The translations under genes were made by a program, and so were the position numbers. From a virus: a stretch of 40,739 bases of DNA. The notes under the pieces are model-generated. The model saw nothing but the letters and a program-made list of their open reading frames with translations. It did not search any database and was not told where the DNA came from. Positions 8,755 to 27,400 of the stretch are shown piece after piece. Positions within the stretch are counted from its first letter, which is position 1, and every line of letters begins with the position of its first letter. The stretch is from the IMG/VR virus record IMGVR_UViG_3300005295_000038, positions 1 through 40,739 of that record; one strand, 5' to 3'.

Positions 8755-8894
8755 TGGAGGTAAGGAGGTGACTGGAGGTATAGCTACCACCCTGCGTCTC
8801 TACGCGCGCGTGTCTCGCATGCGCGTAACCAAGAGAGGTTCCCCCACACAGGGGGGGTAGTAGCGTTACCTCCACTTACCTCCATACCTCCGTT
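8755..8894 (-). repeat. GGAGGTA-bounded dispersed repeat, copy A (intergenic)
   Basis: Read on the minus strand, this 140-nt element aligns end to end with 26574-26712 on the plus strand. The first 47 positions differ at one base. The middle ~45 are diverged, and about three quarters of the last 48 match. The ends carry inverted copies of TGGAGGTAAG, with several extra GGAGGT / ACCTCC units. Both copies lie in the sense direction of the surrounding genes. Confidence 0.85.
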
Positions 8895-8915
8895 TTCGAG
8901 GGCGTTACGCCACGG

Positions 8916-8942
8916 AAAAGCCCCGCACACGGCGTACGGGGC
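8916..8942 (-). terminator. Rho-independent terminator after the protease operon
   Basis: On the minus strand GCCCCG...CGGGGC (11-nt loop, 8920-8942) is followed by TTTT (8919-8916). It lies 18 nt beyond the stop of the 57-aa gene and would end the terminase-portal-protease transcript before the capsid gene. Confidence 0.7.
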
Positions 8943-8959
8943 CTATGTCCGAAGCGCGT

Positions 8960-9133
8960 CTACTTGGTGAGCTTCGGCACCACCTGACGGGTACCACCCA
9001 TAGGCGCCCTCTGTATCTTGATGCGCGCTTCACCCAGGGTTGCCACCCTCTCGGTCGATCCGTCGTGCTTGTACGTGATCAGGTACTCCGAGTTGGCAGG
9101 CTTCGCACCCCCGCCACACGACCCACACGCCAT
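8960..9133 (-). CDS. Small Cys/Gly-start head-region protein
   Basis: A 57-aa basic protein, MACGSCGGGAKPANSEYLITY, then an HDGSTERVATLGEARIKIQ segment. ATG 9133 overlaps the protease stop as TGATG, so it is translationally coupled. Small proteins with a CGxCGGG start and a 'Y.v...dG....f.t..eA' pattern occur in actinophage head operons between protease and capsid genes. The role is unknown. The two N-terminal cysteines could bind metal or cross-link. Confidence 0.65.
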   Translation of the reverse strand: MACGSCGGGAKPANSEYLITYKHDGSTERVATLGEARIKIQRAPMGGTRQVVPKLTK

Positions 9134-10620
9134 CACTCTGCTCCCTTCTGCGCCCACGCCCATCGCGCACGCGCGGTCTCACCGGCCGCCGGAGGTGTCT
9201 CCGCGGCTACCTCCGTTGCCTCCACAGGGGTCATACCCGCAGACGCGATCAGCGTGCGCTGCTGCTCCATGGAGAACGCCACCCTCGCCCGCGGCACCGG
9301 GAACCCCGGCGTGTTCACGCTGCACACCGCGATCAGCTCCAGGCTCCCGCCGATCCGGCGCCAGTCCCCGGACACCGGCGACGACATGAACGTCTGCCGC
9401 GCCTGCGCGCTTGCGCCCGGGAGGACCCAGCCGGCCACCCAGATGCCGTGCTCGTCCTCGCCCGCTACGACCCTGGCCACAGCCGCACCCGGATCGTCGT
9501 AGTGGCTCTGAGCCGCCTGGAAAGCGAGTTGCGGGTCAGCGTGCCGCGGCCCCGCCACGAGCGTCCCCACCGGGAGTACGGTCCCGTCCTGGGTCTGCTG
9601 CTCCGCCACGTGGAAGTACGCATACCCCGAGGCGCTGAACGGGGCGGTCACACAGCCCGGGAGCCCGACGTGGCACGTCTCCCACCCAGCAATGTGCCCG
9701 AACACGCGGCCCGTGTCCGACACCGTGATCGGTGTGAGCCGGTCCAGGTCCGGGCGCAGGAACCAGTCCTGCGGGGGCAGCGCTTCGGGGCGCGCCGAAG
9801 CGGCCAGGGCGAACGGTGCCTCCCGGTCCATGCGCTCGTACAGGCCACGCAGCACGCTTTTCATGCCGTCCGCATCGGCCGGCGCCTTGCCCGTCCGCGC
9901 ACCCTGCACAGCCGCCGCCGCCGCGAACACGCCCCTCGGGATGATGGTCAGCGTCCCGTCGACCACATCAGCGATCCCGAACCCGTACGCGCCCCGTGTC
10001 TCCGGATTGGCCTCGTCGTCCTTGCGCAGGAACGCGCGCGCGTACTTCGACCACGAGACGTTGTCGGGGCCGCCGGCCCACGCGAACACCCGGTCCGCCG
10101 CCCCGCTCCCGTCCCAGGCGTGCCCGGGATCGGCGATGGGCATGTCGGACCAGCCTGACGAGCGTACGGACGCCATCAGCATGGGCATGTCGTCCATGGG
10201 GTGGGCGGGCATCGGATCCAGCGTCAGGGATACATCGGCGAACGCAGGGATCGCTACCAGCGTCGCCCCCGCCACGCGCCATCGGGTGATGACGATGCGG
10301 TCCTGATCGTCCACCGTGTATTCGATGTCGTCCAGGTCCACGGAGGGGCCGACCACACCGGCCTCGATCTGCTCCACAGCCGCGGCGGGCGCTGAATCCA
10401 GCATCGACCCCATCGCTGTGACCATGCCGTCCCCGATGGACAGGGATTCGATGCGTGCCACGATCATGGCGCCCCCGTGCCCGTCGTCCGTCGCGGGCTG
10501 CCACATCATCGGCAGGGGCAGGCCACGCGACGAACCCCCGCCCGGGGCGATGATGCGCCCGTCCCCCGTCGGTACGCCGAGACGGGCCAGTACGGCGCTC
10601 CAGGTGCGGGTCTCAGCCAT
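9133..10620 (-). CDS. Capsid maturation protease (S78-like, three-part)
   Basis: A 495-aa protein. Residues ~1-140 look like the prohead-protease core, ending in the typical WRVAGATLVAIPAFADVSL. Residues ~165-270 (YARAFLRKDDEANPETRGAY; GTLTIIPRGVFAAAAAVQ) match the accessory segment often joined to this protease in actinophages. The C-terminal ~200 (HIAGWETCHVG; SGDWRRIGGSLELIAVCSVN; PGFPVPR) is a third module that also occurs in these proteins. It would cut scaffold domains from capsid subunits. I did not identify the catalytic triad with certainty. The start overlaps the 55-aa gene by 8 nt. A GGAGGTA-rich patch lies near 9200-9225. Confidence 0.75.
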   Translation of the reverse strand: MAETRTWSAVLARLGVPTGDGRIIAPGGGSSRGLPLPMMWQPATDDGHGGAMIVARIESLSIGDGMVTAMGSMLDSAPAAAVEQIEAGVVGPSVDLDDIEYTVDDQDRIVITRWRVAGATLVAIPAFADVSLTLDPMPAHPMDDMPMLMASVRSSGWSDMPIADPGHAWDGSGAADRVFAWAGGPDNVSWSKYARAFLRKDDEANPETRGAYGFGIADVVDGTLTIIPRGVFAAAAAVQGARTGKAPADADGMKSVLRGLYERMDREAPFALAASARPEALPPQDWFLRPDLDRLTPITVSDTGRVFGHIAGWETCHVGLPGCVTAPFSASGYAYFHVAEQQTQDGTVLPVGTLVAGPRHADPQLAFQAAQSHYDDPGAAVARVVAGEDEHGIWVAGWVLPGASAQARQTFMSSPVSGDWRRIGGSLELIAVCSVNTPGFPVPRARVAFSMEQQRTLIASAGMTPVEATEVAAETPPAAGETARARWAWAQKGAE

Positions 10621-10780
10621 CGAGCTCGTCCCCCTTCAAGACGCTGTACCAGAGCGCCCCGTCCGCCCCGCTGACGACGCCGGTGACGTACAGGTCCAGG
10701 AGCTCGGAGGCTGTGGCCGGTTCGGGCATGGGGGCCATGTAGAGCGCCCACCACTCGCTGAACTTTTCTCGGTCGCTCAT
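10613..10780 (-). CDS. Small head-operon protein, 55 aa
   Basis: This short gene fills the only gap between the MuF-like and protease genes. It encodes MSDREKFSEWWALYMAPMPE, then ATASELLDLYVTG and a C-terminal YSVLKGDELDG. ATG 10780 overlaps the MuF stop (TGATG), and its end overlaps the protease start by 8 nt. Both overlaps match the style of this operon. Acidic and probably helical, it has no family I recognise. The fit between two coupled genes is the main evidence. Confidence 0.65.
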   Translation of the reverse strand: MSDREKFSEWWALYMAPMPEPATASELLDLYVTGVVSGADGALWYSVLKGDELDG

Positions 10781-11577
10781 CAGGGGTTCTGCCTTTCTGT
10801 CCAGTCGATCGTCTCACCCAGTACGACGGGGAGCATGGTGCACCGGCAGTTGATGACTTCGCCGGCGGGGCCGCGCGGGTCTCCGGGGAAGAGGAGGGTG
10901 CTGCTGCCGACTCGGAAGGGCTCGGACAGCAGTGTGCGCTGCTTGTCGGCGGCCGTGTGGGTGGGCCGTGTGCGTGCGTCCTCGGTGGCGATCCACTGCT
11001 TGAACGGGGCGGGGTCTCCGCGTTGTTCTGCCTCGAGTTGTGCCCCGCGGTAGACACCTGCGTTGACGGCGCCGAGGGTTTCGGTTCGGGCTACGGTGCG
11101 GGCACGGTTGCGCCAGTACGGCGTTGCTGACGCTGTGAGTACCTCTTGGACACTGCGTGTGACGTCGTCGAGGCTGATTCCGTCCGTTATGCCGCGTTCG
11201 ATCTCACGGACGATGAGCGCGTACACCTCGTCGGGGGTGTTGCTCATCCGGTTGCCAGCCGCGTTCAGGTAGGTGGACGTCCACGGGTCGGTGGGCGGGT
11301 CCCCGGCCCGGGTGACGCGCCGCCACGCGCCCGCGAGCACGCCCCCGACCTCGGGGAGGACTTCGGTGTCGACCTGCTCGGTCCAAAACGGGGTGTGGTC
11401 GGAGACGCGTGCGGGGTCGACGCCTCCGCCCTGGGTGACGGCGGGGCGGACACGATCGAGGAACCGGGTGAGGGAGCGGTACCAGGTGTTGCCGATGCGC
11501 TGCTCGCCCTCACGGATGAACGTCTGCGCGCGCAGCCGCTGGGGCAGGTGCGGGTCCTCGCCGATGGGCGTGGTCAC
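10780..11577 (-). CDS. MuF-like head morphogenesis protein
   Basis: A 265-aa protein. The C-terminal ~110 residues show the MuF pattern: ARTVARTETLGAVNAG, then KQWIATEDARTRPTHTAADKQ, then GEVINCRCTMLPVV. MuF-type proteins are minor head proteins that enter the procapsid with the portal. The N-terminal half is helical, with a SLTRFLDRVRPAV segment. GTG 11577 overlaps the portal stop as GTGA. Position directly after portal is canonical. Confidence 0.85.
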   Translation of the reverse strand: MTTPIGEDPHLPQRLRAQTFIREGEQRIGNTWYRSLTRFLDRVRPAVTQGGGVDPARVSDHTPFWTEQVDTEVLPEVGGVLAGAWRRVTRAGDPPTDPWTSTYLNAAGNRMSNTPDEVYALIVREIERGITDGISLDDVTRSVQEVLTASATPYWRNRARTVARTETLGAVNAGVYRGAQLEAEQRGDPAPFKQWIATEDARTRPTHTAADKQRTLLSEPFRVGSSTLLFPGDPRGPAGEVINCRCTMLPVVLGETIDWTERQNP

Positions 11578-13406
11578 ATCAGCTCCCGCAGCGCCCAGGT
11601 CAGCTCACGGCGGTTGTACGCGGCGCGGGCCCGCAGCACGCCGTAGACGTAGCTGGACACGGCACTGTGGAGCCGCTCGCCGTCCACGCCCAGGGCCTCG
11701 CCCGCCTTGTCCGTGAACTGGAATGACCCCTCCATCAGGGCGTGCACGCGGTCGGGGGTGCGTTCGTACGGGATCTGACGGTACAACTCCTCCTTGGACG
11801 TGCTCTTGAACTGCCCCCGGTTCTGGTTCGTGAGCAGCCGCCCGCCCGCCCGCGACAGTGCGTCGTAGACGATGAGCTCGGCGGCCGCAATGAGCCCGTC
11901 GGGTACGGAGTCGTCGGGCCGGTCCGTCTGTGTGCCCGGGAGTGCGTTGGGCGCCGGGGCGGGCTCGGGTGCCTCGAGTTCGCCTGCGGGTGTGACGGTG
12001 GCGTCGACTCCGGCGGCGACGGGTGCGGGGGTGATGCCGAGTCCCATGGCTTCGGCCACGGCGGGGTCGGCGAGGAGTGTGGGGGCGACGGAGACGAGCT
12101 TTTCCAGGAGCCGGCGGGTGCGCTCCTCCGGGGCGGGCATGGCGTCGATGCTGACGCCGTTCTCGGTGAGGAAGTACTCGTCGGAGATGAGGATCTTGTC
12201 GTAGAGGGATTCGAGGGTTTCGGAGTCGTCGGGGCGGGCGACGATGGCGGTCGTGTCCCACGCGAGTTCGTACGTGGCCGCCTGGTCCGCGCTCATGCCC
12301 ATGGTGATGAGTGCGGGGCGGTACCAATACTCGGTGAGGACGTCGCCGATGGCCTTGAGGAGCGGCTCAATGAAGATCTTGTAGGTGGATTCCTCGACCT
12401 GCCAGGCGGTCCAGTGGTTCGCCTCGCCCTGCGTGCCTTCGGCGACGTCGCGGGGCATGTCGAGGGCGGCCGCAAGACGCTTCAGCGCATCCTGGCGCAG
12501 TTCGATGACCTGTCCGTCGAGCGTGGTGGAGAGATCATAGTGGGCGAACGCGCCACCGTTGGCGATGATCTCCGCGGGCGCGGTGAACAGGACGGGAACC
12601 TGTGCGGCGGCCTGGCCGGGGTCCCGGATGCCGGTCTCGGCGGCGAGGAGGAGCGTGTCGGCGAGGGATGCGGCGGATGTGTCGTGGTCGCCGTGCGGGA
12701 AGTCGACCTCCTCGGCGAGGGCGGCGAGCCCGTTCATGGCGATGCGGGAGTCGAGGCGCGCGGCGAGGTTCTGTGTCGCCTTTTCGACCTCGCGGCATTC
12801 GACGAGTGCGGGGCGCATGGCGGAGTCGGGCTTGGCCTGGTCGAACGGGTGGGGGGACCAGGAGCGGACGAGGAGGCTGTTCGCATCAAGGGCGGTCTCT
12901 GCGCCGGTCATCGGATCGCAGTAGACCCAGGCGGCGCCCTTGGCCCTCACCTTCTGGCCGGACAGCACGAACCAGTCGTCGGGTTTGCCCTGGCCACGGG
13001 GGCGGACGATGACCCAGTACTCGCCGACGCACTGCCAGCATAGGGCTGCGCTGCGCAGGAGTCCGGAGCGCTTGGAGGGGCCGCCGAGGACCTGCATGGC
13101 GGCCGCGTTCGCGGTGGCGTTGTCGGTGGGCCCGGTGGGCTTGCCCGTGTCGGGGTCCAGCTCGGAGGCGTAGAGGTCGGCCTGCGAGACGGCGTTGGCG
13201 ATCCACACCATGGGGGCCCGAACCTCGCCGATGACGTCGAAGTAGTAGGCGGCGTCGTTTTGCCACTGCTCCGTTGTGGACTGCTTCTGGGTGCGGCTGA
13301 TCTGCCGGACCTGCGGCCCGTTCAGCGGCATGGCGGCCGCGAGTACGGTCTTGGCCGGCTGGGGTGTGTCCGGGCCGGTACCGCGCAGCCTGTCAAGGAT
13401 GCCCAC
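11574..13406 (-). CDS. Portal protein
   Basis: A 610-aa protein located between TerL/DUF1360-like and MuF genes. Portal-like landmarks are the WQNDAAYYFDVIGEVRAPMVW N-terminal region, VLGGPSKRSGLLRSA, and a central MPRDVAEGTQGEANHWTAWQVEESTYKIFIEPLLK. The last corresponds to the helix and crown region of the SPP1/HK97-type portals of actinophages. It forms the dodecameric DNA entry ring. The C-terminal ~150 residues add a Pro/Ala linker and a helical tail (LYRQIPYERTPDRVHALM). It starts with GTG 13406, sharing a base with the TAG of the upstream gene. Confidence 0.85.
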   Translation of the reverse strand: MGILDRLRGTGPDTPQPAKTVLAAAMPLNGPQVRQISRTQKQSTTEQWQNDAAYYFDVIGEVRAPMVWIANAVSQADLYASELDPDTGKPTGPTDNATANAAAMQVLGGPSKRSGLLRSAALCWQCVGEYWVIVRPRGQGKPDDWFVLSGQKVRAKGAAWVYCDPMTGAETALDANSLLVRSWSPHPFDQAKPDSAMRPALVECREVEKATQNLAARLDSRIAMNGLAALAEEVDFPHGDHDTSAASLADTLLLAAETGIRDPGQAAAQVPVLFTAPAEIIANGGAFAHYDLSTTLDGQVIELRQDALKRLAAALDMPRDVAEGTQGEANHWTAWQVEESTYKIFIEPLLKAIGDVLTEYWYRPALITMGMSADQAATYELAWDTTAIVARPDDSETLESLYDKILISDEYFLTENGVSIDAMPAPEERTRRLLEKLVSVAPTLLADPAVAEAMGLGITPAPVAAGVDATVTPAGELEAPEPAPAPNALPGTQTDRPDDSVPDGLIAAAELIVYDALSRAGGRLLTNQNRGQFKSTSKEELYRQIPYERTPDRVHALMEGSFQFTDKAGEALGVDGERLHSAVSSYVYGVLRARAAYNRRELTWALRELM

Positions 13407-13699
13407 TACTCCTCACCTTCCCTGGAGGCCAGGTGTCCGGCCGCCGAGCTGTATGCGAATGCGAGCGGGGCCGCCCACGTCCAGGACCATGCACCGATGC
13501 TTGCGCCGGTGAGCGCAGCGCCTGCGCCGACGTACACGGAGACACACCAATCGCAGGTGATGAGGTAGGCGAGGAGCCCGTGTTCGTCGAGCCTGTTGAG
13601 CGTCCACCGGCGGGGCGCGGCCGTGATGCGGTCCCGGGTGATGAGCCGGGTGACCCGGTGGGTGGCGAGTGCGCCGACGGCGAGGGTGATCAGGTCCAT
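13406..13699 (-). CDS. DUF1360-like small membrane protein
   Basis: A 97-aa protein with MDLITLAVGALATHRVTRLITRD at the N-terminus and a CDWCVSVYVG motif, followed by a hydrophobic stretch (residues ~57-85). The 'LAt.R.trLi..D' start and 'C.wCvsvwv' core are typical of DUF1360, a family often present near packaging genes of actinophages and in Bacillus. Two hydrophobic segments suggest membrane association. The function is unknown. SD GGAGG lies 4 nt before ATG 13699. Confidence 0.75.
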   Translation of the reverse strand: MDLITLAVGALATHRVTRLITRDRITAAPRRWTLNRLDEHGLLAYLITCDWCVSVYVGAGAALTGASIGAWSWTWAAPLAFAYSSAAGHLASREGEE

Positions 13700-13707
13700 G
13701 GTGCCTC

Positions 13708-15147
13708 CTATGATGCCGTGCGGCGTGCGGCCCGGTCACGTGCGGTCATGAGCGGGTGTACGACTCCGGCGCCCCGGCGCGCGGCCCCGTACGGGTTGTG
13801 GATGACGGACTCGGCCCGGTCGTGCTTCTTCATGAGGTGGGTGACGGCGTGGACCATGGCGTCAACCCGGTCGGGGCTGTTGTTGTCCTCCTCGGGGATC
13901 CACGTCGTGAGTTGGTCCTCGAGCTCGGGGAACGAGCCGACGTGGCAGACGCGTGCCTGTTCGTAGCGCATGGCGACGGGCTGCGCGCGCAGGCGCTTGC
14001 CCTGGGAGGCGTTGACGCGGCGCAGGGGCGGGTTGGAGCCGTCTGTGCGCAGCTCCTTCCATACGGCCTTGAGGACGTGCTCGATCCAGTCCTTGCCGCC
14101 GTTGTCCTCGACGACGAGGAGGGAGGCGCCCCACGTCTCCAGGAGCCCCCATGCGCGGCGGGCGGCCCGGTCCGGGGACAGTTTCTCGGACGCGTCGGCG
14201 AGGATGTAGTTCTTGCCGTCGGTCCCGCGGCCGGCGACGACGAGCCCGGTTTCATCTCCGGCGCCGGTGCCGGCGGGGTCCATGCCGACGACGATGTTGA
14301 CGAGCTCGGGTGCCTCTTGGACACGGCTTCCGTCGATGTGTCGGCGGGCGACGAGTGCACCGGGGAGGTCCTCGAGGACTTCGGCGTCGAGTTCCTGGCG
14401 GCCGAGCGTGGTGCCCTCGTATTTGGCGATGACCGCGCGCCGGAAGGTGGGGGCGAGGTTGTCGAGGTTGTCGTACGTGGACCCGCGGACGACGGCGGTC
14501 ATCGGGTCCTTGAGGAGCGCCTTGATGAGGGGGAGCGGCCGGGGTGTGGTGGTGACACAGATCTGGGGGTGCTCGCCGAGACGCATGCCGAGCTGGGCCA
14601 TGTCCCATGCGTGCTGGAGGTAGCGCCAGGCGGCAAGCTCGTCGAACCAACCGTAGTGGTGCTGTGGGCCTCGCAGACGGTCGGGCTCGTCTGCGGAGTA
14701 GCACATCTGGATGGCGCCGTTGGGGTAGGTGAGGCGCCTTTTCGAGGGCTCGTATACGGGCCGGAAGAGGGCGGGGGCGCACGCGAGGATGCCGGACTCG
14801 CCCTGGACGATGATGTCCCGGGTGTCGGCAGCGGTCGCACCGATGAGGGCCCCGCGTTCCTGGGTGCGCGCCTTTTCGAGGGCCCACTCGGCGCCGAGGC
14901 GGGTCTTGCCGAATCCGCGGCCGGCGAGGGCCAGCCAGACGTCGAACTCCCAGTCGGGGGCAAGCTGGGAGGCGCGCGCGTGGGCGCCCATGCGACCGGG
15001 GTGCGGCCGCCCGTCGCAATCCGGGCGGCCACAGCGCCACGGTACCTTACCGGCCTCGCGCTCCTGGACGGTCTGCTCGAGGGCGATTTCGAGCCGGGCC
15101 AGGTCCGCCGGCGACAGCCCCGCGAGTTCGGCCCGGCTGATCTTCAC
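13708..15147 (-). CDS. terL: Terminase large subunit (ATPase-nuclease)
   Basis: A 479-aa protein that drives DNA packaging. ATPase: Walker A LAGRGFGKT at ~74-82, Walker B WFDE at ~167-170, and a TTTPRPL coupling-type motif at ~199. Nuclease: GMDPAGTG with D290, VVEDNGGKDW, and DRVDAMVHA near the C-terminus, the three acidic positions of the RNase H-like fold. A CGRPDC segment at ~39-44 may bind metal. Start GTG 15147 overlaps the TerS stop (GTGA); sequence upstream of it in the same frame is shadow. Length is normal for HK97-type large terminases. Confidence 0.92.
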   Translation of the reverse strand: MKISRAELAGLSPADLARLEIALEQTVQEREAGKVPWRCGRPDCDGRPHPGRMGAHARASQLAPDWEFDVWLALAGRGFGKTRLGAEWALEKARTQERGALIGATAADTRDIIVQGESGILACAPALFRPVYEPSKRRLTYPNGAIQMCYSADEPDRLRGPQHHYGWFDELAAWRYLQHAWDMAQLGMRLGEHPQICVTTTPRPLPLIKALLKDPMTAVVRGSTYDNLDNLAPTFRRAVIAKYEGTTLGRQELDAEVLEDLPGALVARRHIDGSRVQEAPELVNIVVGMDPAGTGAGDETGLVVAGRGTDGKNYILADASEKLSPDRAARRAWGLLETWGASLLVVEDNGGKDWIEHVLKAVWKELRTDGSNPPLRRVNASQGKRLRAQPVAMRYEQARVCHVGSFPELEDQLTTWIPEEDNNSPDRVDAMVHAVTHLMKKHDRAESVIHNPYGAARRGAGVVHPLMTARDRAARRTAS

Positions 15148-15632
15148 CCGGTGGACTCCTTGTCCAGTCGCTCGAGGAGCTGTTCGATGCGGGTGACGCC
15201 TTCGGACTGCCTTGTCATCGCCTTGTCGCCGGCCAGGATGCTGTTCTGCTCGACGCGGGCCATGACCTCTACTGCGCGGGACCACATGGCCGTCGGGTCC
15301 ATGCCCTTGGCGATGAACACGTCGAGGCGGGTGTCGAGGAGCCCGCGCAGTTTGTCCATGAGTGCCAGGTTCTTGTCCCGGATCCGGGCAAGCTCGTGGA
15401 CGGCGCCATCGAGGTGCGCGGTGACCGTGTAGGAGTCGTAGGCGGCGGACCGCTCAACCCAGTTGTACTCGATCGACCACCGTTTCAGCATGGAGGCCGA
15501 CCTGCCGCACTCGGCGGCCGCGCGCGCGATGGTGCGGTCCTTGCCGAGATGGAGGTAGGCCTTGAATGCGTCGTAGGCGCCGGAGCGCTCTCCCTCGCCG
15601 TCTTGCCGCACCCAGGGCTGTTCGTTCGCCAT
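15144..15632 (-). CDS. terS: Terminase small subunit
   Basis: A 162-aa protein. An N-terminal helix-turn-helix (AYDAFKAYLHLGKDRTIARA, then CGRSASMLKRWSIEYNW, about residues 20-60) is the DNA-recognition domain. A long helical oligomerisation region and a short C-terminus (RIEQLLERLDKE) that would contact TerL follow. SD GAGAGGAG lies 5 nt before ATG 15632. Recognition site (cos or pac) is not identifiable from the sequence but should lie nearby. Confidence 0.85.
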   Translation of the reverse strand: MANEQPWVRQDGEGERSGAYDAFKAYLHLGKDRTIARAAAECGRSASMLKRWSIEYNWVERSAAYDSYTVTAHLDGAVHELARIRDKNLALMDKLRGLLDTRLDVFIAKGMDPTAMWSRAVEVMARVEQNSILAGDKAMTRQSEGVTRIEQLLERLDKESTG

Positions 15633-15643
15633 GGTTGCTCCTC

Positions 15644-16141
15644 TCAGGTGTCCTTCCTACAGAGGAAGTAGTCCACATCCTTGATGTCCACTATGACGCC
15701 GCTGTACCCCGCGGGGCACGCTTCGGCGACGTCGCCTTGCGGACCCTGGGGCCCTTGCGGGCCACTCGGGCCGACTGGGCCCTGGTCACCTTGCGGTCCC
15801 GCGGGTCCGGGAATGCCCTGCGCCCCGGTTTCACCCGCTTGGCCCCTGGCACCAGGTTCGCCAGCAGGACCGACAGCTCCCGTCGGTCCTGTGGCCCCAA
15901 CTGCGCCAGACGGGCCCGTAGCTCCGTCCTTGCCGTCACGGCCATCCTTTCCGGCGACGCCGGTGTCGCCCTTGGGTCCTGCGACGGGGGTGCCGCCGAG
16001 GGACCGCACCTGTTGCGCGAGGGCGGTGCGGTCCCGTTCGGCGGTGTCGAGTCTGTCGGCGAGGCCGCGCCCGTAGACGATCGCGTAGGCGACGGCCACC
16101 CACAGGGCGATGACCGTAGTCCACCAACGGAGCGTCTTCAT
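15644..16141 (-). CDS. Membrane-anchored collagen-like protein
   Basis: A 165-aa protein. Residues ~4-24 ([21 protein letters not shown]) form a signal-anchor membrane helix. A short coiled-coil follows ([19 protein letters not shown]), then about 27 uninterrupted Gly-X-Y triplets (residues ~56-137). The C-terminal knob ([20 protein letters not shown]) has two cysteines. ATG 16141 overlaps the stop of the holin-like gene (ATGA). Collagen-like repeats usually occur in tail fibres; the membrane anchor and placement in the lysis cassette argue for a cell-envelope role instead. A frame 24 codons longer upstream is shadow inside the holin gene. Confidence 0.75.
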
Positions 16142-16380
16142 GGTGTCTTCCCCAGTACGAGGTACAGGACGATCCCCACGATGACAGGGCCGACGACTGC
16201 TGACCACACCCAACGGCTCATCGCGTCGAGCCGCGCCCGGTCCTCGGCCTGGTCTTTCGCAAGCCCCTCGAGCCGCAGGTCCAGGATCTCCTTGGTCACG
16301 TACTGCTCCTGACGTTGCAGGATGGTGCGTACGTCGGCCTGGAGGTCCCGGAGGAGCTCGGGAATGGTCGGCTCGTCCAT
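16138..16380 (-). CDS. Holin-like membrane protein
   Basis: An 80-aa protein: a charged N-terminal helix with [21 protein letters not shown] and [19 protein letters not shown], then a single C-terminal membrane helix (about residues 51-75, [21 protein letters not shown]). Proteins with a coiled-coil first and one C-terminal TM segment are frequent next to actinophage endolysins and are usually called holins or holin-associated. It lies six bases after the amidase stop. It could instead be a modulator of the r1t-like holin at 32292-32504. Confidence 0.65.
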
Positions 16381-19798: not shown

Positions 19799-20409
19799 GG
19801 CGTACTCGTGGGACGGGTACGGGCGCACCCGCACCTGCTCTTCCCGAGAATGGCCCTGCACCCGTCGTGCTCGTCGTGAAACAGGATGCCGTGCCCGCAG
19901 CCGGTGCAGAACGCATTGCGGTGATCCCGCCAGTTACCTCCGCAGCCCCCGCACCTGGCGTCCGAGTGCGCATGAAGGGGTTGCACGAGCGGGCACGGGT
20001 CCGGCTCGGGGTGCCCGACGTCGCGGGGCTCGGGGTCCGGTTCGCCGTGCTCGAAGTGCTGCGCGGCGCCGGGGAACGCCGGGCACCCGGGGACGGTGCA
20101 CAGCCGGGCCGCGACGGCGTCCTCATAGCGGGCCTGCGGGCTCAGGTGGAGCGCCATGACCTCGGTGGCGGCCTGGGTGGCGATGGCGCGGACGTCGGCG
20201 GGGGTGAGGGGCATCGCGCGCACCGGGAACCCCTGGCTCAGCCACTGGTCGATTTCGTCACGCAGGGACCTGGCTTCCCGCCTACTCAGCTGCACCGGCA
20301 CGCGGTCCGAGTTGCTGGCGTGCCCGATGCGAACGCGGATGTAGTCGTTGGTCGCCGCGACGGACAACTCGTATCCGTCATCGTCGGTGTGTGCGAACAG
20401 GTAGCCCAT
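19795..20409 (-). CDS. Early protein with C-terminal zinc-ribbon-like cysteines
   Basis: A 204-aa protein. Residues ~1-60 form a beta-rich domain (YLFAHTDDDGYELSVAATND; VPVQLSRREARSLRDEIDQW). The C-terminal ~90 are Cys/His-rich: CTVPGCPAF, then CGGCGGNW.DH, FCTGCGHGILFHDEHDGC and SRCGCA. It may bind two or more zinc ions. It could be a nucleic-acid-binding adaptor in the replication operon. ATG 20409 overlaps the nuclease stop (TGATG). No named family is recognised. Confidence 0.6.
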   Translation of the reverse strand: MGYLFAHTDDDGYELSVAATNDYIRVRIGHASNSDRVPVQLSRREARSLRDEIDQWLSQGFPVRAMPLTPADVRAIATQAATEVMALHLSPQARYEDAVAARLCTVPGCPAFPGAAQHFEHGEPDPEPRDVGHPEPDPCPLVQPLHAHSDARCGGCGGNWRDHRNAFCTGCGHGILFHDEHDGCRAILGKSRCGCARTRPTSTP

Positions 20410-20795
20410 CACTTCTCCTCTCCGGGCGCCCACGGCACCCAATCTTTGGGCCCGGGGCCCGTCAGTTCGCGGTACAGGATCGTCTTGCGGCGTGCGTTGT
20501 TCGGGTCCTGGGCTCGGTAGGCGACAACCGGCAGGGCCCCTGCCCGGAGGGCGAGGTCCTGCACAGCGAGTCGCTCGGCCGGCGGGATGACCGGGTTGGT
20601 GATCTTGCACTGGATGAAGAGCAGGTCAGCGTCCGGCTGTGCTCCGCACTCGTAGGTGCGGAGCGGACCCACCGCCACGACGTCCACGGCGCCGCGCGAG
20701 CCGGAGGATCGCAGGCACGTGTACCCGTGCTCCTCCAGCGCATGCATGACATCCAGCTCGAACTGGGCACCCTGGCGTGTGGTGTTACGCGCCAC
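20409..20795 (-). CDS. Holliday-junction-resolvase-like nuclease (PD-(D/E)XK)
   Basis: A 128-aa protein. RQGAQFELDVMHALEEHG near the start, then SGSRGAVDVVAVG with D at ~41, then LLFIQCKITN form the E...D...Q-C-K arrangement of archaeal Hjc-type and phage PD-(D/E)XK resolvases. The usual (D/E)xK is represented by QCK. It would resolve branched DNA before packaging or act in recombination with the helicase. Start GTG 20795 (VARNTTRQG) was preferred because an upstream ATG frame overlaps a separate 38-aa membrane gene. The SD is weak. Confidence 0.65.
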   Translation of the reverse strand: MARNTTRQGAQFELDVMHALEEHGYTCLRSSGSRGAVDVVAVGPLRTYECGAQPDADLLFIQCKITNPVIPPAERLAVQDLALRAGALPVVAYRAQDPNNARRKTILYRELTGPGPKDWVPWAPGEEK

Positions 20796-20901
20796 GGTTG
20801 CGCCGCCTGTCTTCCCGGCGCTGCGAGAAACGGCCCATGTGGAACAAAAAGGCCCCCGATACGACATTGGCCACGATGCGCACCCAGTCCCAGTCAGCCA
20901 C
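20785..20901 (-). CDS. Tiny membrane protein, 38 aa
   Basis: It encodes VADWDWVRIVANVVSGAFLF, then a highly basic tail (RFSQRREDRRRNRGA). GTG 20901 overlaps the stop of the 66-aa gene (within 8 nt), and its end overlaps the nuclease start by 11 nt. A short hydrophobic helix plus positive C-terminus is typical of small phage membrane peptides. It fills a gap otherwise lacking a gene. Confidence 0.5.
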   Translation of the reverse strand: MADWDWVRIVANVVSGAFLFHMGRFSQRREDRRRNRGA

Positions 20902-21094
20902 GGTCGTCGCCCCGGTCGACGATGTCGATGGGCGCGTCCTCGGCGTTGAGCTGCTCCAGGTGACGGCGCTCGGAGCGGGCCAGGAGGCCGTCCCAGAGCA
21001 CCTCCATGAACGTCCAGACGCCGGAGAAAATGATGCCGGCGGCCACCATCCAGAGGACGACGTAGTACCAGGGGATTCCGAACACGATGATCAC
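20894..21094 (-). CDS. Small single-pass membrane protein
   Basis: A 66-aa protein with a long hydrophobic stretch (IPWYYVVLWMVAAGIIFSGVW, residues ~6-28) and a charged cytoplasmic tail (RSERRHLEQLNAED). GTG 21094 follows an AAGGAGA SD with 4-nt spacing, and is the first gene after the promoter at 21171-21208. The frame continuing upstream reads through the promoter and is shadow. It is an early-expressed membrane protein of unknown role. Confidence 0.6.
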   Translation of the reverse strand: MIIVFGIPWYYVVLWMVAAGIIFSGVWTFMEVLWDGLLARSERRHLEQLNAEDAPIDIVDRGDDRG

Positions 21095-21130
21095 TTGTCT
21101 CCTTGTTGGGGTTGGTGCGGAGCGCCCCGG

Positions 21131-21147
21131 GCCCGATTCGATCGGGC
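21131..21147. promoter_or_regulatory. Palindrome in early leader
   Basis: A perfect 7-3-7 inverted repeat (GCCCGAT-TCG-ATCGGGC) lies between the early promoter and the 66-aa gene. It could be an operator or a weak RNA hairpin. Confidence 0.4.
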
Positions 21148-21170
21148 GCCGTCGCGGTGTGACCGGGGCC

Positions 21171-21208
21171 GATGACTTAAGTAAAGCGGTTCTCGGTAGG
21201 GGTGTCAA
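21171..21208 (-). promoter_or_regulatory. Early promoter, copy 3
   Basis: On the minus strand TTGACA (21208-21203), 17 nt, then TTTACTTAAGTCATC. It matches the two other copies (23984-24022 and 28708-28745) over the -10 block and following bases. It would transcribe 21094 downward and lies just beyond the helicase stop. Confidence 0.75.
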
Positions 21209-21214
21209 CCCCTG

Positions 21215-22909
21215 TCAGACGTAGTGGTCGACGATCTGCCCGAACTTCACCAGGTCAATCGCGTCCGCCACCTGGCCGCGGTCCATCCCCGCGACGTCGA
21301 TCCCGAGGCTGTATGCGTAGTCGAGCTGCGCCTGAGTCGGCTCGCTCTTCCGCCACCGGGCCGAGCGCTGCACCGAGAACTCCGAGTAGTCCTCCGCCAC
21401 AGCCTCACCCCACGCCATCGCCTCCCCGATGCTCAGGCCCAGGTACTGGGTCCGCTCCATTCGCTTGCCCTCGGTGAGGGTGCCGACGTCCCACAGACCG
21501 GACTGACCCAGGGTGGGCCACAGGAACACGCGGGTCTTGCCGCAGGCGATGAACAGGACGCCCTTGGGAGTCCTGTTCCACACCTTGTCCGAGGCGGCGA
21601 ACGCGTCCACGTCGCGCACCTTCAACTCGAAGGCGAGAGAGCCGGCCGGAACCAGCTTGTTCTGGGCCTCCGCCTCCCGTACGACGGCCTCTGCAAGAGA
21701 CTCACCCTCTTGCAGGGACCCGACCGCGCCGGGCTCCAGGTCGATCAGGGTCCGCAGCTTGTTCGAAGAGGCCCCGACGAGGTCCAGGACGAGTGCCTCC
21801 CGCTTGCCGGGCCAGGGCCGCAGCACGCGGCCTACCATCTGCGTGTACAGCGGCGCGGACTGGGTGGGCCGGGCAATGACGGCAACCTCCGCCCACGGGG
21901 CATCGAAGCCCTCGGTGAGGACCATGCAGCTGACGAGCACCTGGCAGCGGCCCTGACGGTAGCGTTCGTAAATCTCCCGCCGGTCGTCCCGGGGCGTGTT
22001 CCCGTCAACGGGGATCGCCACGATGCCCGCGTCCAGGAGCGCCTTGGAGGCCGCTACGGCCGTCTCCACGGTCGGCGTGAACACGATGCCCTGCCGGTCC
22101 CCAGCGTGCTCTTTGTAGGCGTTGGCGATGACGGTGTCGAACTTGGACTCCATCAGGGCGTCGCCGAGGGCTGCGGCCTGCCAGTCGCCCATGCCGACCT
22201 TGACGCCGGCAAGGGACAGGCTCTCCAGGTCGATTCGCTTCGTACGGACGTCGGTGAGGTGCCCTTTGGAGATCAGGTTCAGGATGGATCGCTGGTAAAC
22301 GACGTCGTCCCAGACCTTGCCGAGTCCCCGCTTGTCGCCGCGGGCCATGGTGGCCGTGACGCCGAGCTGGAGCGCGTTCGGGAACGCGTCGTAGATCTTG
22401 CCGTACGAGACGGCGGCAGCGTGGTGGCACTCGTCCGTGATGATCAGCCCGACGTCGCCGAGCCGGCCGCCGGGGCGGGTGCCGTTGGGTGCAACGGTGC
22501 CCTGGCGCTCCTTGAGGAGCTTGAGGCGCCGGGAGGAGGCCAGGGTCTGCACCGAGCAGACCATGACGTCCGCGTCGATGTCGTTGTCCCCGGCCTTGAC
22601 CTTGCCGACGTTGACGTCCGGCATGACGGAACGCAGTTTGGCGATCGCCTGATCGACGAGCTCGTCACGGTGGGCGAGGATGATGACGCGCTTGCCCACG
22701 TCCCACGCTCCAGGTATGACCTGTGTCGTACCGATCGGAATCACAGGGGTCTGAACCGCCATGAACTCCTTGACCAGGGCCGAGAACACCACGGTCTTCC
22801 CCGCGCCGGTCGGCAGCACGATCGCCGGCCGGCGCATGCCGTCGGCCCACGCCTTGAACACGGCGTCAATGGCCTCGCGCTGATAGTCGCGCAGCTTGAT
22901 CGCGGTCAC
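21215..22909 (-). CDS. Superfamily 2 DECH-box helicase
   Basis: A 564-aa protein. RDYQREAIDAVF (Q-like motif), Walker A LPTGAGKT (~32-39), DECH box ITDECHHAAA (~157-165), TATMARGDKRGLGK, and motif VI QMVGRVLRPWPGK identify an SF2 helicase of the RecG/RAD25-like DEAD/DECH group. A C-terminal extension (from ~455) with ARWRKSEPTQAQLDYAYSLG may bind DNA. It is likely to remodel forks or recombination intermediates. GTG 22909 overlaps the upstream stop (GTGA). It is cotranscribed with the regulator at 23617-23967. Confidence 0.85.
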   Translation of the reverse strand: MTAIKLRDYQREAIDAVFKAWADGMRRPAIVLPTGAGKTVVFSALVKEFMAVQTPVIPIGTTQVIPGAWDVGKRVIILAHRDELVDQAIAKLRSVMPDVNVGKVKAGDNDIDADVMVCSVQTLASSRRLKLLKERQGTVAPNGTRPGGRLGDVGLIITDECHHAAAVSYGKIYDAFPNALQLGVTATMARGDKRGLGKVWDDVVYQRSILNLISKGHLTDVRTKRIDLESLSLAGVKVGMGDWQAAALGDALMESKFDTVIANAYKEHAGDRQGIVFTPTVETAVAASKALLDAGIVAIPVDGNTPRDDRREIYERYRQGRCQVLVSCMVLTEGFDAPWAEVAVIARPTQSAPLYTQMVGRVLRPWPGKREALVLDLVGASSNKLRTLIDLEPGAVGSLQEGESLAEAVVREAEAQNKLVPAGSLAFELKVRDVDAFAASDKVWNRTPKGVLFIACGKTRVFLWPTLGQSGLWDVGTLTEGKRMERTQYLGLSIGEAMAWGEAVAEDYSEFSVQRSARWRKSEPTQAQLDYAYSLGIDVAGMDRGQVADAIDLVKFGQIVDHYV

Positions 22910-23082
22910 GGCAGCACCACCTCCCACGGTTCGTCCTCGCACGGCGGCTCCATGATGTAGATGTCGGCACCGACGGCCAGGTGGAAGCCGCCCTTGAAGG
23001 GCTGGATGGACACCTCGACTCCCGCCTGTTCGATTTCGTTCAGCAGCGCGCCGAGCTTGTCGGCCGCCTCCTGTTCGGTCAC
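22906..23082 (-). CDS. Small acidic early protein
   Basis: A 58-aa protein: TEQEAADKLGALLNEIEQAG (helix), then VEVSIQPFKGGFHLAVGADI (beta hairpin), then EPPCEDEPWEVVLP. GTG 23082 overlaps the upstream stop, and the end overlaps the helicase GTG. Acidic, with a possible helicase-partner role by coupling alone; family not recognised. Confidence 0.55.
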   Translation of the reverse strand: MTEQEAADKLGALLNEIEQAGVEVSIQPFKGGFHLAVGADIYIMEPPCEDEPWEVVLP

Positions 23083-23300
23083 TGGTCCCTCTCCTCGACG
23101 GTCTCGGACGCCCACCACATCGAGCTGATGTGGCATCCGGGGTGCTCCTGACAGAACCGGTGCGTGCACTGGTCCTCAAAGGCGCCCCGGACGATGTCGC
23201 TGTCGTGGGTCATCTCGTCCACCCGGGCCCGCATACACGGCGTACCGCCGGTCTCCGGCTCCCCGATGATGGTCAGCGTCCACAACTGTCTCGTGGTCAC
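23079..23300 (-). CDS. Small Cys/His-containing early protein
   Basis: A 73-aa protein: TTRQLWTLTIIGEPETGGTP, then CMRARVDEMTH and CTHRFCQEHPGCHISSMWW. The CTHRFCQEHPGCH cluster has the look of a zinc-binding loop. GTG 23300 overlaps the upstream stop (GTGA), and the end overlaps the next GTG. Function unknown. Confidence 0.55.
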   Translation of the reverse strand: MTTRQLWTLTIIGEPETGGTPCMRARVDEMTHDSDIVRGAFEDQCTHRFCQEHPGCHISSMWWASETVEERDQ

Positions 23301-23620
23301 AACGCCTCCTTATTGCGCTGCTTGCGGATGAGCCAACGTTCCTGGTCGTACCGGCCCCGGTCCTCGACGCATACGTCGCACCGGCACCGGTAGTAGTTGT
23401 AGGCCTGGCGGCCGTGGGTCACACCCTCGGGGACGGGGGTGGCGTTCCTGATCTGACGGGCCCGCCGCCGCCGGTTGTAGGTGCGGTCGTAGGCGCGCTT
23501 GTGCTCCTGGCAGTCGCGGCACCGGCACTTGTAGGCCTGGTAGGCACGCAGAGAGCGGTGCTGGACGCCGTCCGGGAGCTGTACCGGGGGCTGCGGCGGG
23601 TGCGGGGCGGCCCCGGTCAC
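23297..23620 (-). CDS. Duplicated CxC..C zinc-finger-like protein
   Basis: A 107-aa basic protein with two copies of one motif: HRSLRAYQAYKCRCRDCQEH (about 21-40) and HGRQAYNYYRCRCDVCVEDR (about 71-90). Each is H....AY..Y(K/R)CRC..C. The motif is a recurrent actinobacterial and actinophage small-domain pattern, presumably zinc-binding with DNA or RNA contact through the intervening RTYNRRRRARQIRN stretch. GTG 23620 overlaps the upstream stop (GTGA). It may be a regulator of the early operon. Confidence 0.6.
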   Translation of the reverse strand: MTGAAPHPPQPPVQLPDGVQHRSLRAYQAYKCRCRDCQEHKRAYDRTYNRRRRARQIRNATPVPEGVTHGRQAYNYYRCRCDVCVEDRGRYDQERWLIRKQRNKEAL

Positions 23621-23967
23621 GGCAGCAGCCTCGCGGCCCGGCCGCGGAGAATCTCGGCAATGCCGTCCATGATGTGGTGAACGTGTGCGTTCGCCAAGTT
23701 GTCCTCCGGGCTTGCCGGCAGGTTCCTCTCCAGGAGTTCGGCGGCCGCGATGTACGCCTCCGCCGTGGCGCGCCGACATGCGGCCTCCACGGTGGTACGA
23801 CCGCCCATCTTGGCAGTGGCGAGGCCGAGTTCGCCGGAGACGTAGCCCTCGCGGACGTTCAGCTCCTTGGCGAGTTCGCGCTGACGCTTGCCGTCCATAA
23901 CGCCCTTGAGTACGGCGTCCTGGATGGGGGTGAGGGGCCCGTTGCGGGGTCTGTGCTCGTTGCCCAT
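23617..23967 (-). CDS. LuxR-type HTH DNA-binding protein
   Basis: A 116-aa protein. LTPIQDAVLKGVMDGKRQRE, then LAKELNVREGYVSGELGLATAKMGG has the helix-turn-helix layout of LuxR/sigma-region-4-type domains, followed by a helical C-terminus. It is the first gene behind early promoter copy 2 and has a clear AAAGGAA SD before ATG 23967. It is therefore probably made immediately after infection and could control early or late transcription. Confidence 0.65.
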   Translation of the reverse strand: MGNEHRPRNGPLTPIQDAVLKGVMDGKRQRELAKELNVREGYVSGELGLATAKMGGRTTVEAACRRATAEAYIAAAELLERNLPASPEDNLANAHVHHIMDGIAEILRGRAARLLP

Positions 23968-23983
23968 CGGGTTTCCTTTCGCT

Positions 23984-24022
23984 CGATGACCTAAGTAAAA
24001 CGGGGGCCGCGCTAGCTGTCAA
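23984..24022 (-). promoter_or_regulatory. Early promoter, copy 2
   Basis: On the minus strand TTGACA (24022-24017), 17 nt, then TTTACTTAGGTCATC. The 3' block is identical to the copy before the methyltransferase gene. It reads toward the HTH gene at 23967 and is divergent from the plus-strand unit starting at 24051. Confidence 0.78.
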
Positions 24023-24038
24023 CCCTTGTCGCTCCGCG

Positions 24039-24050
24039 TATCCTGGACGC
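24039..24050 (+). promoter_or_regulatory. Candidate leaderless promoter of plus-strand early unit
   Basis: TATCCT (24039-24044) sits six bases before the ATG at 24051, with no SD in between. This fits a leaderless mRNA starting at or next to the A of ATG, common in Streptomyces. The only -35-like sequence at normal spacing is TGTCAA (24017-24022), the reverse complement of the divergent promoter's -35, so the two promoters would compete. Confidence 0.45.
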
Positions 24051-24263
24051 ATGGACACCGAAACCACTCGCGTCACGCGCGTACAGGCCGCGCTCCTCGT
24101 CAACGTCTCCGAGCGCACCATCAGCCGATGGAGCTCTAAGGGGTGGATCACCGTTCACCGGCCCTACGGGGCGTACGGGCCGGCGGAGTACGACCTCAAG
24201 GAGGTACAGGCTGCGGCCGCCCGGAGCGGACGCATTGTCGACCTGGACTTGCCGTCCGGCTGA
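24051..24263 (+). CDS. MerR-like helix-turn-helix protein
   Basis: A 70-aa protein: TRVTRVQAALLVNVSERTIS, then RWSSKGWITVHR, with a C-terminal AEYDLKEVQAAAARSG. It has the single wHTH of MerR or excisionase-type proteins. No integrase exists for it to partner, so a transcriptional regulator of the divergent early region is more likely. It appears leaderless and is divergent from the LuxR-type gene. The two regulators may form a switch. Confidence 0.65.
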   Translation: MDTETTRVTRVQAALLVNVSERTISRWSSKGWITVHRPYGAYGPAEYDLKEVQAAAARSGRIVDLDLPSG

Positions 24264-24285
24264 ACACTGTCTTACAGTCCTCGGC

Positions 24286-24456
24286 ATGCAGTCACTCGCC
24301 GAGGGTGAAAGCCCCTCCATCACCGTGCGCATGCCGCGCACCACCATCGAACGCCTTGACCGGGAGTGCCGTACCTACGGCCTCTCCCGGTCGGACGTCG
24401 TCCGCCAGATCCTCGACGCCGCACTGGCCCGGTCCGAAGCGGGGGACTCCGAATGA
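24286..24456 (+). CDS. Ribbon-helix-helix (Arc/CopG-like) protein
   Basis: A 56-aa protein: SPSITVRMPRTTIERLDREC, then YGLSRSDVVRQILDAALAR. It has one beta strand and two helices, the standard RHH DNA-binding dimer. ATG 24286 was chosen over an upstream frame because the strand begins just after it; no strong SD is visible. Its stop overlaps the polymerase fusion start (ATGA), suggesting autoregulation coupled to replication. Confidence 0.7.
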   Translation: MQSLAEGESPSITVRMPRTTIERLDRECRTYGLSRSDVVRQILDAALARSEAGDSE

Positions 24457-27400
24457 CCCTCAGCTCAACCCACCGGCAGTACCTGAACGAGCACGCCGTC
24501 ACCGACGACGTCATCGAACGGCACGGCGTCCGCTCCGAGGGCGATGAGATCGTCTTCCCCTGGACCGACGGCGACCGCCACACCGAGCAGCGCCGGCCGT
24601 GGCCGGGCGGATCCGGGGTCTACTTCTGGGAGCCGGAAAAGGATCTCCACTTCTGGATGCTCCGCGACGCCGGGCCCGGTACCCCCGTGCTGCTAATCGA
24701 GGGCACGAAGCAGTCCCTGGCCGGCTCCGCGTACGCCCCCGAGGGCTTCACCGTGATGGGCATGGCCGGGTGCTGGGGTTGGTCCAAGGAGAGGCTGGGC
24801 CGGTTCAAGGACCGTGACGTGTACCTCTGCCTCGACGCTGACGCCGCGTCCAACCTGGACGTGTACGAAGCGGGCGACAAGCTCGGGGAAAAGGCACGGA
24901 GGTATGGGGTCAACCTCCGTTACCTCCGGATCCCCGGCTCCGGGTCCCAGGGCCTCGACGACTACCTCGCCTCCCTCGAGGAGGACGAGCGCGCGGAGAT
25001 CCTGGCGTACGAAATCCAGCACGCGCACTCCAAGCCCGCCGAGCGGCGGCCGACGAACCGCAAGCGCAAGATGGAATCGGACATGCCCGACCTCGGTGAC
25101 CGTGTCGGGGTGGCCATCAACCTGGACCGCAAGCAGGTTATCGACAAGATCACCGGTGCGCTCAAGGAGCGGCACGACGCTGTCGACCTGTTCAACTACG
25201 GTGACGTCCTGACCCGCGTACAGGGTCACGAGACCCAGCCGCTGGACCGGGACCGCTTCTACGCCATGCTCGCCGACGCCGTCGCGTGCTTCCGGTACAC
25301 GGAGGCAACGGACAAGCGACCGGCACTCTTCGAGCCCGCGTGGCCCGACCCGCCGTCGATCGGCGCGGTAATGAGCAAGTCCGAGGAGTTCTCGACGCTG
25401 ACGCGTGTCGTCCGGGTGCCGTTCCTGCGGCCGGACGGCTCCGTGTGCACGGCGCCCGGGTATGACCGAGAGACGACCACAGTCCTGGTCCCGTCCGGGC
25501 TCGGTGAGCTGCACGTGCCGGAGGAGCCGACCAAGGAGCAGGTCCGTCTGGCGGCCAAGTACCTCCTCTCGGAGTGGCTCGGGGACCTGCCGTTCAAGAC
25601 CGAAGCGGACCGCGCCAACGCCCTGGCGTGGGCTCTGACGCCGTTCATGCGCGGCCTGGTCCCCCTGGCGCCTCTGACAGTGGTCAGCGGCCTCCAGATG
25701 GGCGTCGGCAAGAACCTCCTCGCGGACTGCATCCACATCCTGGCGACCGGGGAGGCGGCCATGCCTCTGCCGTACGTCGCCTCGGAGGAGGAGATGCGCA
25801 AGCAGTTGACCGCCGCGTTCGCCGGCGGGGCCGAGATGTTCATCTTCGACGAGGCGCACGTCGTCGAGGGCGCACAGCTTGCCCGCGCAGTGACGTCGCT
25901 GACCTACGGGGACCGCGTACTCGGTGTCTCGCGGATCGCGAAGTTCCCGAATCAGGTGACGTGGGCCAGTCTCGGGAATCAGGTTCAGGTGAACGGGGAC
26001 ATGGCCCGGAGGGTCTACTTCGTCTACCTCCATCCCACCTCCGACAACGTCATCGACCGGGAGGCCAAGGAGTTCCGGCACCCGGACCTCAAGGCGTGGA
26101 CGAAGGAGAACCGCACGGACCTCGTGAGTGCCGCCCTGACGGTGCTGCGCGGGTGGGTTGTGGCCGGACGCCCGGCGTACTCCCGCGGGGCCTGCATGGG
26201 CTCGTTCGAGCCCTGGGACCGGATGCTGTCGGGTGTCCTGGCCTACGCGGGTCACCCGGCATTCCTGACGGACATGCGGGAGCGCCGGTCGGAGTCGGAC
26301 TACACGAACTCGTACTGGGAGTCGCACATCCACTGGCTTCACAGCCTGTTCGGGGACGAGGAGTTCACGACTCGGCAGGTTCAGGAGGCGGCCCTGCGGG
26401 ACCCGGCAGGGTACGAAGCACCTCCCGGGATGGAGGACGCGTCTGGGAAGGCGTTCACGCGGCAGCTCGGCCAGGGGTACGCAAAGCACCGCGACCGCAA
26501 CTACAACGGGGTGCGTCTGGTCAAGGCGGGCATGGGGCACAAAAGCACCATCAAGTGGCGAACCGTCTCGCAGAACGGAGGTATGGAGGTGAGTGGAGGT
26601 AACGCTACTACCCCCCCTGTTACGGGAGAACGTCTCTCAGACGTGCGTGACGCACACACGCGTGTAGAGGCGCAGGGTGGTGCGGTTCCCTCCACCTCCC
26701 TCCTTACCTCCAGTGCTCCGCTGGAGCCGCAGGGTTCGCTGACCTATGACGACTGGGGCAGCGTGGTGGGGCCTGCGGAGTACCCGGACCAGGAGCCGAC
26801 CGTCCTCGGGTTCGACCTGGAGACCGCATCGGTAGAGCAACTCTTCACCGGCGGCCACGAGGGACCGTACGTCCGGCTCCCCGGCGTCATCACGGAGGCG
26901 ACTGAGCGGATCATCCCCACAGTCCCGACGCTCCTGGCCACGCTCAACCGTGCCGACGTCATCCACGATCACAACGGGTTCGGGTTCGACCTGCTCGCGT
27001 TGGCGCGCCACTGCGGGGCCGACTACGCCGGGCTCGCGGCCAAGAACTGGGACACGCAGGTGGCCGAGTACGTCATCGACCCGCCCCTGTCCAAGGGCAT
27101 GCCGAGCGGGTACTACAGCCTGAACGGCCTCGCCGAGCGGTACGGGGTGCCGGCCAAGACCGACGACATCAAGCGGCTTGCGGCCAAGCACGGCGGGTTT
27201 GACCGCATCCCGCTCGACTCCCGCGAGTATCAGGACTACCTCCTCGGCGACCTCGCCACCCAGCACGGCGTGTACAAGGCGCAGCGCGCCCGTGCGACCG
27301 AACTGGGCCTGGACGAGTACCTGGCCCGGGAAATGCGTGTGGCGGCTCTTCAGAACACCTGCACGCTGAACGGCTGGAAGGTCGACACCGAACTCCTCGC

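What the first reader, a model, noticed from the sequence alone, without database searches (positions are those of the whole stretch)
8755..26712. A ~140-bp dispersed repeat sits both in the capsid leader and in frame inside the replication polyprotein
Minus-strand 8755-8894 and plus-strand 26574-26712 align over their whole length (140 and 139 nt). They show 46/47 identity at one end, a diverged middle and good identity at the other end. Both ends consist of GGAGGTA / TACCTCC units, with inverted TGGAGGTAAG at the termini, and both are in the sense of the surrounding genes. One copy is noncoding; the other encodes the linker exactly where a helicase half meets a polymerase half. The one-base length difference breaks the shared peptide frame. 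A shorter relic is at 24896-24930, and a TACCTCC-rich patch lies near 9200-9225. Candidate explanations are a MITE-like mobile unit that created or marks the fusion seam, an iteron-type replication or control site, or a multi-SD RNA element.
Basis: partly seen in the sequence, partly recalled or inferred. Interest (0 to 1): 0.85.

Follow-up and report, generated by a model that had tools for sequence, protein, structure and literature searches.

The report
Replication origin hidden inside replication gene
A virus of soil bacteria appears to carry its DNA-copying start site inside the very gene that makes its copying machine, written so that it also codes for protein, plus a second copy of the site almost half a genome away; the same arrangement, with different site sequences, recurs in other actinobacterial viruses.

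Summary
The repeat is real: two ~136-bp copies, 82% identical (BLAST E 5e-30), one in the major-capsid leader (8755-8894, minus) and one in frame at the helicase|polymerase seam (26574-26712, plus). Each copy is two inverted arms of three GGAGGTA units, spaced 8 and 10 nt, around a variable middle. A sibling phage (70% identical polyprotein) has both copies at the same two sites. The helicase half is homologous to RepA of Streptomyces plasmid pWTY27, which is published to footprint on a 105-bp inverted repeat directly 3' of repA. In 74 of 80 actinobacterial relatives of that helicase, the 400 bp after the helicase hold an iteron array richer than every control window in the locus; 8- and 10-nt spacings dominate. 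Plasmid RepA proteins end about where copy B begins. Two further phage groups, with different iterons, also have a pair: one copy in frame at the helicase end, one intergenic elsewhere. Best explanation: copy B is the initiator-binding origin, read through into polymerase; copy A is a second initiator site. It is not a MITE and not a Shine-Dalgarno element. Origin function is inferred, not shown.

The parts
26574..26712 (+). Copy B: in-frame element at the helicase|polymerase seam; peptide GGMEVSGGNATTPPVTGERLSDVRDAHTRVEAQGGAVPSTSLLTS
26577..26601 (+). Copy B left arm, three iterons (GGAGGTATGGAGGTGAGTGGAGGTA)
26687..26711 (-). Copy B right arm, three iterons inverted (GGAGGTAAGGAGGGAGGTGGAGGGA)
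8755..8894 (-). Copy A: non-coding element in the leader of the major head protein gene
8867..8891 (-). Copy A left arm, three iterons
8756..8780 (+). Copy A right arm, three iterons inverted
24453..28694 (+). Primase-helicase-polymerase fusion gene (ATG start chosen by alignment to the sibling; frame open back to GTG 24366)
25098..26573 (+). SF3/D5-type initiator helicase domain; predicted helices followed by two strands at the C-terminus (read here as a winged helix) end where copy B starts
27915..28664 (+). DNA polymerase family A domain (PF00476)
6896..8635 (-). Major head protein gene downstream of copy A
8915..8942 (-). Terminator-like GC hairpin plus T run just upstream of copy A (by eye; the consensus scan did not flag it)

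Best explanation
Copy B is a replication-initiator binding site, most likely the origin. The C-terminal domain of the phage's own SF3/D5-type helicase would bind the two inverted trios of GGAGGTA, load helicase on the intervening ~85 bp, and start primer and DNA synthesis with the primase and polymerase domains of the same polypeptide. In relatives this site lies just after the helicase stop codon. Here the stop is gone and the site is translated as the linker into a fused polymerase, so the DNA is constrained both as a binding site and as an open frame. Copy A is a second site for the same initiator in the major head protein leader, about 17.8 kb away, and would act with copy B as paired sites (DNA looping, a second origin, or copy control). 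Shown here: sequence architecture, position, homology, nucleotide-level constraint, recurrence of the pair. Inferred: protein binding, origin function, and the role of copy A.
For: Helicase homologous to pWTY27 RepA (tblastn 2e-37), whose protein footprints on a ~105-bp discontinuous inverted repeat of iterons next to repA (PMC3583192). Plasmid RepA C-termini align to and end about where copy B begins. 74 of 80 actinobacterial loci have, in the 400 bp from the helicase end, a 7-mer count above every control window of the same locus. Same-strand iteron spacing is mostly 8 nt (65 of 86 loci) then 10 nt (31 of 86), as in the phage. Synonymous codons in copy B are frozen: 26/29 identical between window and sibling versus 333/565 in the helicase part (Fisher p 7e-4). 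The pair recurs in phage G006 (GGGGGGACC units, copies 86% identical) and phage G008 (GGGGTATTAG units, 68%), with under 57% identity between groups. Helicase model (pLDDT 90) matches SF3/D5 replication helicases, among them SaPI5 primase-helicase PriRep1. pRN1 and PICI origins also lie directly 3' of such helicase genes (PMC4234260, PMC6092414).
Against: No binding or replication data for this phage. Fused relatives of the phiAsp2 type lack the element, so it is not required for this enzyme class. GC skew shows no clear origin signal at either site. The middle is only slightly less GC-rich than the genome (about 0.65 vs 0.68). The position of the second copy is not conserved between phage groups.
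Confidence: 0.8

Rival explanations
1. MITE-like mobile unit that inserted twice, once creating the in-frame linker.
For: Inverted terminal arms, variable middle, two dispersed copies.
Against: No target-site duplication in the flanks. Both copies sit at the same two sites in a sibling with 70% identical polyprotein. The arm pattern has 0 hits in 84,980 genomes. In other phage groups the arms are a different sequence but both copies of a genome agree.
Confidence: 0.04
2. Regulatory operator: an early repressor or the helicase binds both copies to control transcription of the capsid operon and the replication gene; replication is not involved.
For: Copy A lies between a terminator-like hairpin and the major head gene. 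Dispersed palindromes that look like operators occur in the related phage phiAsp2.
Against: Copy B lies 2.1 kb inside a gene, not at a promoter; no sigma-70-like promoter near copy A. Position after the helicase matches plasmid origins, and second copies in G006 and G008 precede unrelated genes.
Confidence: 0.08
3. RNA element: multi-Shine-Dalgarno or hairpin acting on translation or mRNA stability.
For: GGAGGTA resembles a Shine-Dalgarno sequence and the strand folds very stably (about -80 kcal/mol).
Against: Equivalent elements in G006, L119 and G008 have units that are not SD-like. Inverted DNA repeats fold well in any case. No Rfam match in the window.
Confidence: 0.04
4. Partition or incompatibility site (centromere-like), with replication initiated elsewhere.
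For: Iteron arrays can serve partition; two copies per genome.
Against: The array follows the initiator helicase, and in pWTY27 the array is part of the minimal replication locus (PMC3583192). No partition gene was seen among the 20 window ORFs scanned (not every ORF was scanned).
Confidence: 0.04

Closest known systems
Rep-adjacent iteron origin of Streptomyces theta plasmid pWTY27 (RepA, IR2; PMC3583192)
   Same: Homologous helicase; array directly 3' of it; 7-8-nt units in inverted groups forming a ~105-bp inverted repeat with a C-rich inner stem
   Different: pWTY27 array is non-coding after the stop codon and single; here it is translated in frame into a fused polymerase and a second copy exists. 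Unit sequence differs (GTGGGAAC vs GGAGGTA)
pRN1 stem-loop origin (PMC4234260)
   Same: ~100-bp stem-loop just 3' of an SF3-helicase replication protein; essential for replication and works when moved
   Different: Archaeal plasmid, prim-pol rather than a TOPRIM-like N-terminus, non-coding
SaPI/PICI origins (PMC6092414)
   Same: Origin immediately 3' of the Rep helicase; two iteron sets flanking a melting region; SaPI5 PriRep1 is among the structural matches of the phage helicase
   Different: Non-coding, AT-rich middle, one site
Bacteriophage lambda origin inside gene O (PMC7466680)
   Same: Iterons translated in frame inside the initiator gene
   Different: Direct 18-bp iterons in the middle of a non-enzymatic initiator (iteron length from my own knowledge); not at an enzyme fusion seam; one site
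Phage P4 ori1 and crr (own knowledge, not tested; PMC6092414 mentions the alpha protein and its ori site, written 'ccr' there)
   Same: Primase-helicase initiator with two separated iteron-bearing sites in one genome
   Different: P4 sites are non-coding and the protein is not fused to a polymerase; iteron design differs

Membership tests
pWTY27-type RepA/iteron origin | Homologous initiator helicase encoded next to the site | tested here: met
   tblastn 2e-37 to pWTY27; alignment across the domain
pWTY27-type RepA/iteron origin | Site directly 3' of the helicase domain | tested here: met
   Copy B starts at the helicase end; 74 of 80 relatives have an array there. Copy A is the exception
pWTY27-type RepA/iteron origin | Short iterons in inverted groups with 8/10-nt spacing | tested here: met
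pWTY27-type RepA/iteron origin | Non-coding position after the stop codon | tested here: not met
   Copy B is in frame, no stop before the polymerase. In 12 of 86 relatives the first iteron also lies before the stop
pWTY27-type RepA/iteron origin | Initiator binds the site; site supports replication | not testable with these tools
   Needs EMSA/footprint and origin assay
P4-type two-site origin (ori1/crr) | Two separated iteron sites per genome | tested here: met
   Window, sibling, G006, G008
P4-type two-site origin (ori1/crr) | Both sites required for replication | not testable with these tools
   Genetics needed
Lambda-type in-gene origin | Iterons translated in the initiator gene | tested here: met
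   Frame open; synonymous sites frozen
MITE | Target-site duplication and copies at unrelated sites | tested here: not met
SD-type RNA element | SD-like unit conserved across homologous elements | tested here: not met
   Units differ and are not SD-like in G006, L119, G008

The most novel reading that the evidence does not exclude
In several actinophage lineages one polypeptide holds primase, initiator helicase and (in the fused forms) polymerase, and its gene carries its own origin as the translated inter-domain linker; a second copy elsewhere forms an obligate partner site, and both copies change together whenever the initiator's DNA preference changes.
Probability: 0.35. Interest if true: 0.8.

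Novelty: new variant of a known kind. Interest (0 to 1): 0.62.

Why it matters
It would explain what sits at the seam of a phage replisome polyprotein, show how an origin can be kept intact through a gene fusion by being translated, and give a simple rule (look directly after SF3/D5 helicases, then look for the second copy) for finding origins in actinophages and related elements. The two-copy rule across groups with unrelated iterons makes initiator-origin co-evolution and two-site initiation directly testable.

Tried and rejected
Relic at 24896-24930: protein-coding coincidence, absent in the sibling. Patch at 9200-9225: one unit only. MITE: no target duplication, fixed sites, no genome hits. 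Multi-SD RNA: units not SD-like in other groups. Element as cause of the fusion: phiAsp2 fused without it, Woodruffviruses unfused without it. BLAST of either copy against 50,697 phage records found nothing. Rfam and tRNA scans empty. GC skew uninformative. L026 from the two-arm scan is an ACGGAGG-type simple repeat with no helicase, taken as a chance match. Literature search for a helicase-polymerase fusion with an internal origin found nothing relevant in the held library.

Full report
OBSERVATION. The window is a complete-looking phage genome: the first and last 70 bases are identical. Copy A (8755-8894, minus) and copy B (26574-26712, plus) are 82% identical from end to end, E 4.8e-30. Each copy is an inverted repeat. 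A left arm GGAGGTAtGGAGGTrAgTGGAGGTA faces a right arm whose reverse complement is GGAGGTAaGGAGGkrAsTGGAGGkA, with units 8 and 10 nt apart, then a C-rich inner stem and a variable middle. There are exactly four such arms in the window.

CONTEXT. Copy A lies between a 67-aa ORF with a terminator-like hairpin and the major head protein gene. Copy B lies in the 24453-28694 gene, between the helicase domain and a family A polymerase. There is a weak DUF3854 match at the N-terminus; I read it as TOPRIM-like from general knowledge.

SIBLING AND RELATIVES. IMG/VR contig 3300049210_000044 (G001, polyprotein 70% identical) has both copies at the same two places, in frame at the seam and in the head-protein leader. 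Contigs G002 and G005 have the head-leader copy with different middles; they do not cover, or do not show, the helicase gene. Actinoplanes phage phiAsp2 has the same fusion with an acidic linker and no element; Woodruffviruses have separate genes and no element. So the element neither causes the fusion nor is needed for it.

NUCLEOTIDE-LEVEL CONSTRAINT. Between window and sibling, degenerate codons at conserved residues are identical in 26 of 29 cases in copy B, 333 of 565 in the helicase part and 177 of 334 in the polymerase part. No 15-codon window among 693 in the helicase part equals the left arm (12 of 12). Copy B is kept for its DNA as well as its peptide.

WHAT IT IS. The helicase half matches RepA of pWTY27 (2e-37) and other actinobacterial plasmid proteins. 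In pWTY27, RepA binds a ~105-bp inverted repeat of 7-8-nt iterons next to repA, in the minimal replication locus (PMC3583192). Plasmid RepA proteins end shortly after the conserved W-R/S-V motif, which is where copy B begins in the phage. In 80 genome loci of this helicase family, 74 have a 7-mer in the 400 bp from the helicase end that is commoner than in any control window of the same locus. Spacing between like-oriented units is 8 nt in 65 of 86 loci and 10 nt in 31, the two spacings seen in the phage. The unit itself differs between lineages (ATCTCCG, CCCCGCA, GCAGGGA, AAACCCG and so on). The predicted helicase (pLDDT 90) ends in helices plus a beta hairpin consistent with a winged helix, and matches SF3/D5 replication helicases including SaPI5 PriRep1, NrS-1 and D5/E5. 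Origins directly 3' of such genes are known in pRN1 (a 100-bp stem-loop) and PICIs (two iteron sets).

THE PAIR RECURS. Phage G006 (59.7 kb) has a GGGGGGACC version in frame at its helicase|polymerase seam and a second copy 20 kb away, after a terminator-like hairpin. Phage G008 (60.9 kb) has a GGGGTATTAG version in frame at the end of a helicase ORF that stops before any polymerase, and a second copy in the tail-gene region. L119 shows the in-frame form too, on a partial contig. Identity of the two copies is 82% (window), 73% (sibling), 86% (G006) and 68% (G008), but under 57% between groups. Both sites therefore follow the same recognition sequence. An unrelated P4-family primase-helicase (D5_N, DUF5906, Pox_D5) in G004 also carries inverted GGGAGG arrays in frame at its C-terminus.

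HISTORY. In the head-leader copies of the window and G002, the ~24 nt upstream of the left arm resemble the last helicase codons upstream of copy B (14-16 of 24 identical, p about 1e-3 to below 1e-4; not in the sibling's own pair, 9 of 24). This hints that copy A was copied from copy B together with the end of the helicase gene, or that the site is longer than the arms. The tree puts in-frame elements on several branches of one phage clade, with the phiAsp2 subclade lacking them; long branches make gain versus loss uncertain.

LIMITS. Binding and origin activity are not shown for this phage. The role of copy A is inferred from its shared recognition sequence and from my own knowledge of P4 ori1/crr, which I could not check in the held literature.

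Noticed in passing
Locus L163/L008 (phiAsp2 AY576796: 638, 3485, 5474, 8293, 16276, 20252, 30528, 33754, 45706, 49370): A dispersed 16-bp palindrome TGACA-N6-TGTCA occurs about ten times in phiAsp2, one inside the helicase|polymerase linker; similar motifs lie in the linkers of its relatives. Looks like a stoperator or operator set.
   Followed up: partly
Locus L165 1806-4067 and L166 1-332 (IMG/VR 3300049893_000722): P4-family primase-helicase with in-frame inverted GGGAGGAAGGGAGGGAGG arrays at its C-terminus (peptide GGREGG...PPSLPPS); the contig appears circular and is broken inside the array.
   Followed up: partly
window 24453-28694: Against the sibling the helicase part is 84% identical (597/708) but the polymerase part only 55% (350/637), with the step at copy B: a possible recombination seam.
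   Followed up: no
Loci L048, L052, L056, L060, L072 and others: In 12 of 86 plasmid or integrated relatives the first iteron lies before the RepA stop codon, so reading into the origin may be common.
   Followed up: no
Locus L024 7700-8080: In the head-leader element of this contig the motif GACATAGTT recurs in the terminator loop, the element middle and (as GATATAGTT) the downstream leader.
   Followed up: no
window 1-70 and 40670-40739: 70-bp direct terminal repeat: the record is a complete, circularly closed assembly of 40,669 bp.
   Followed up: no
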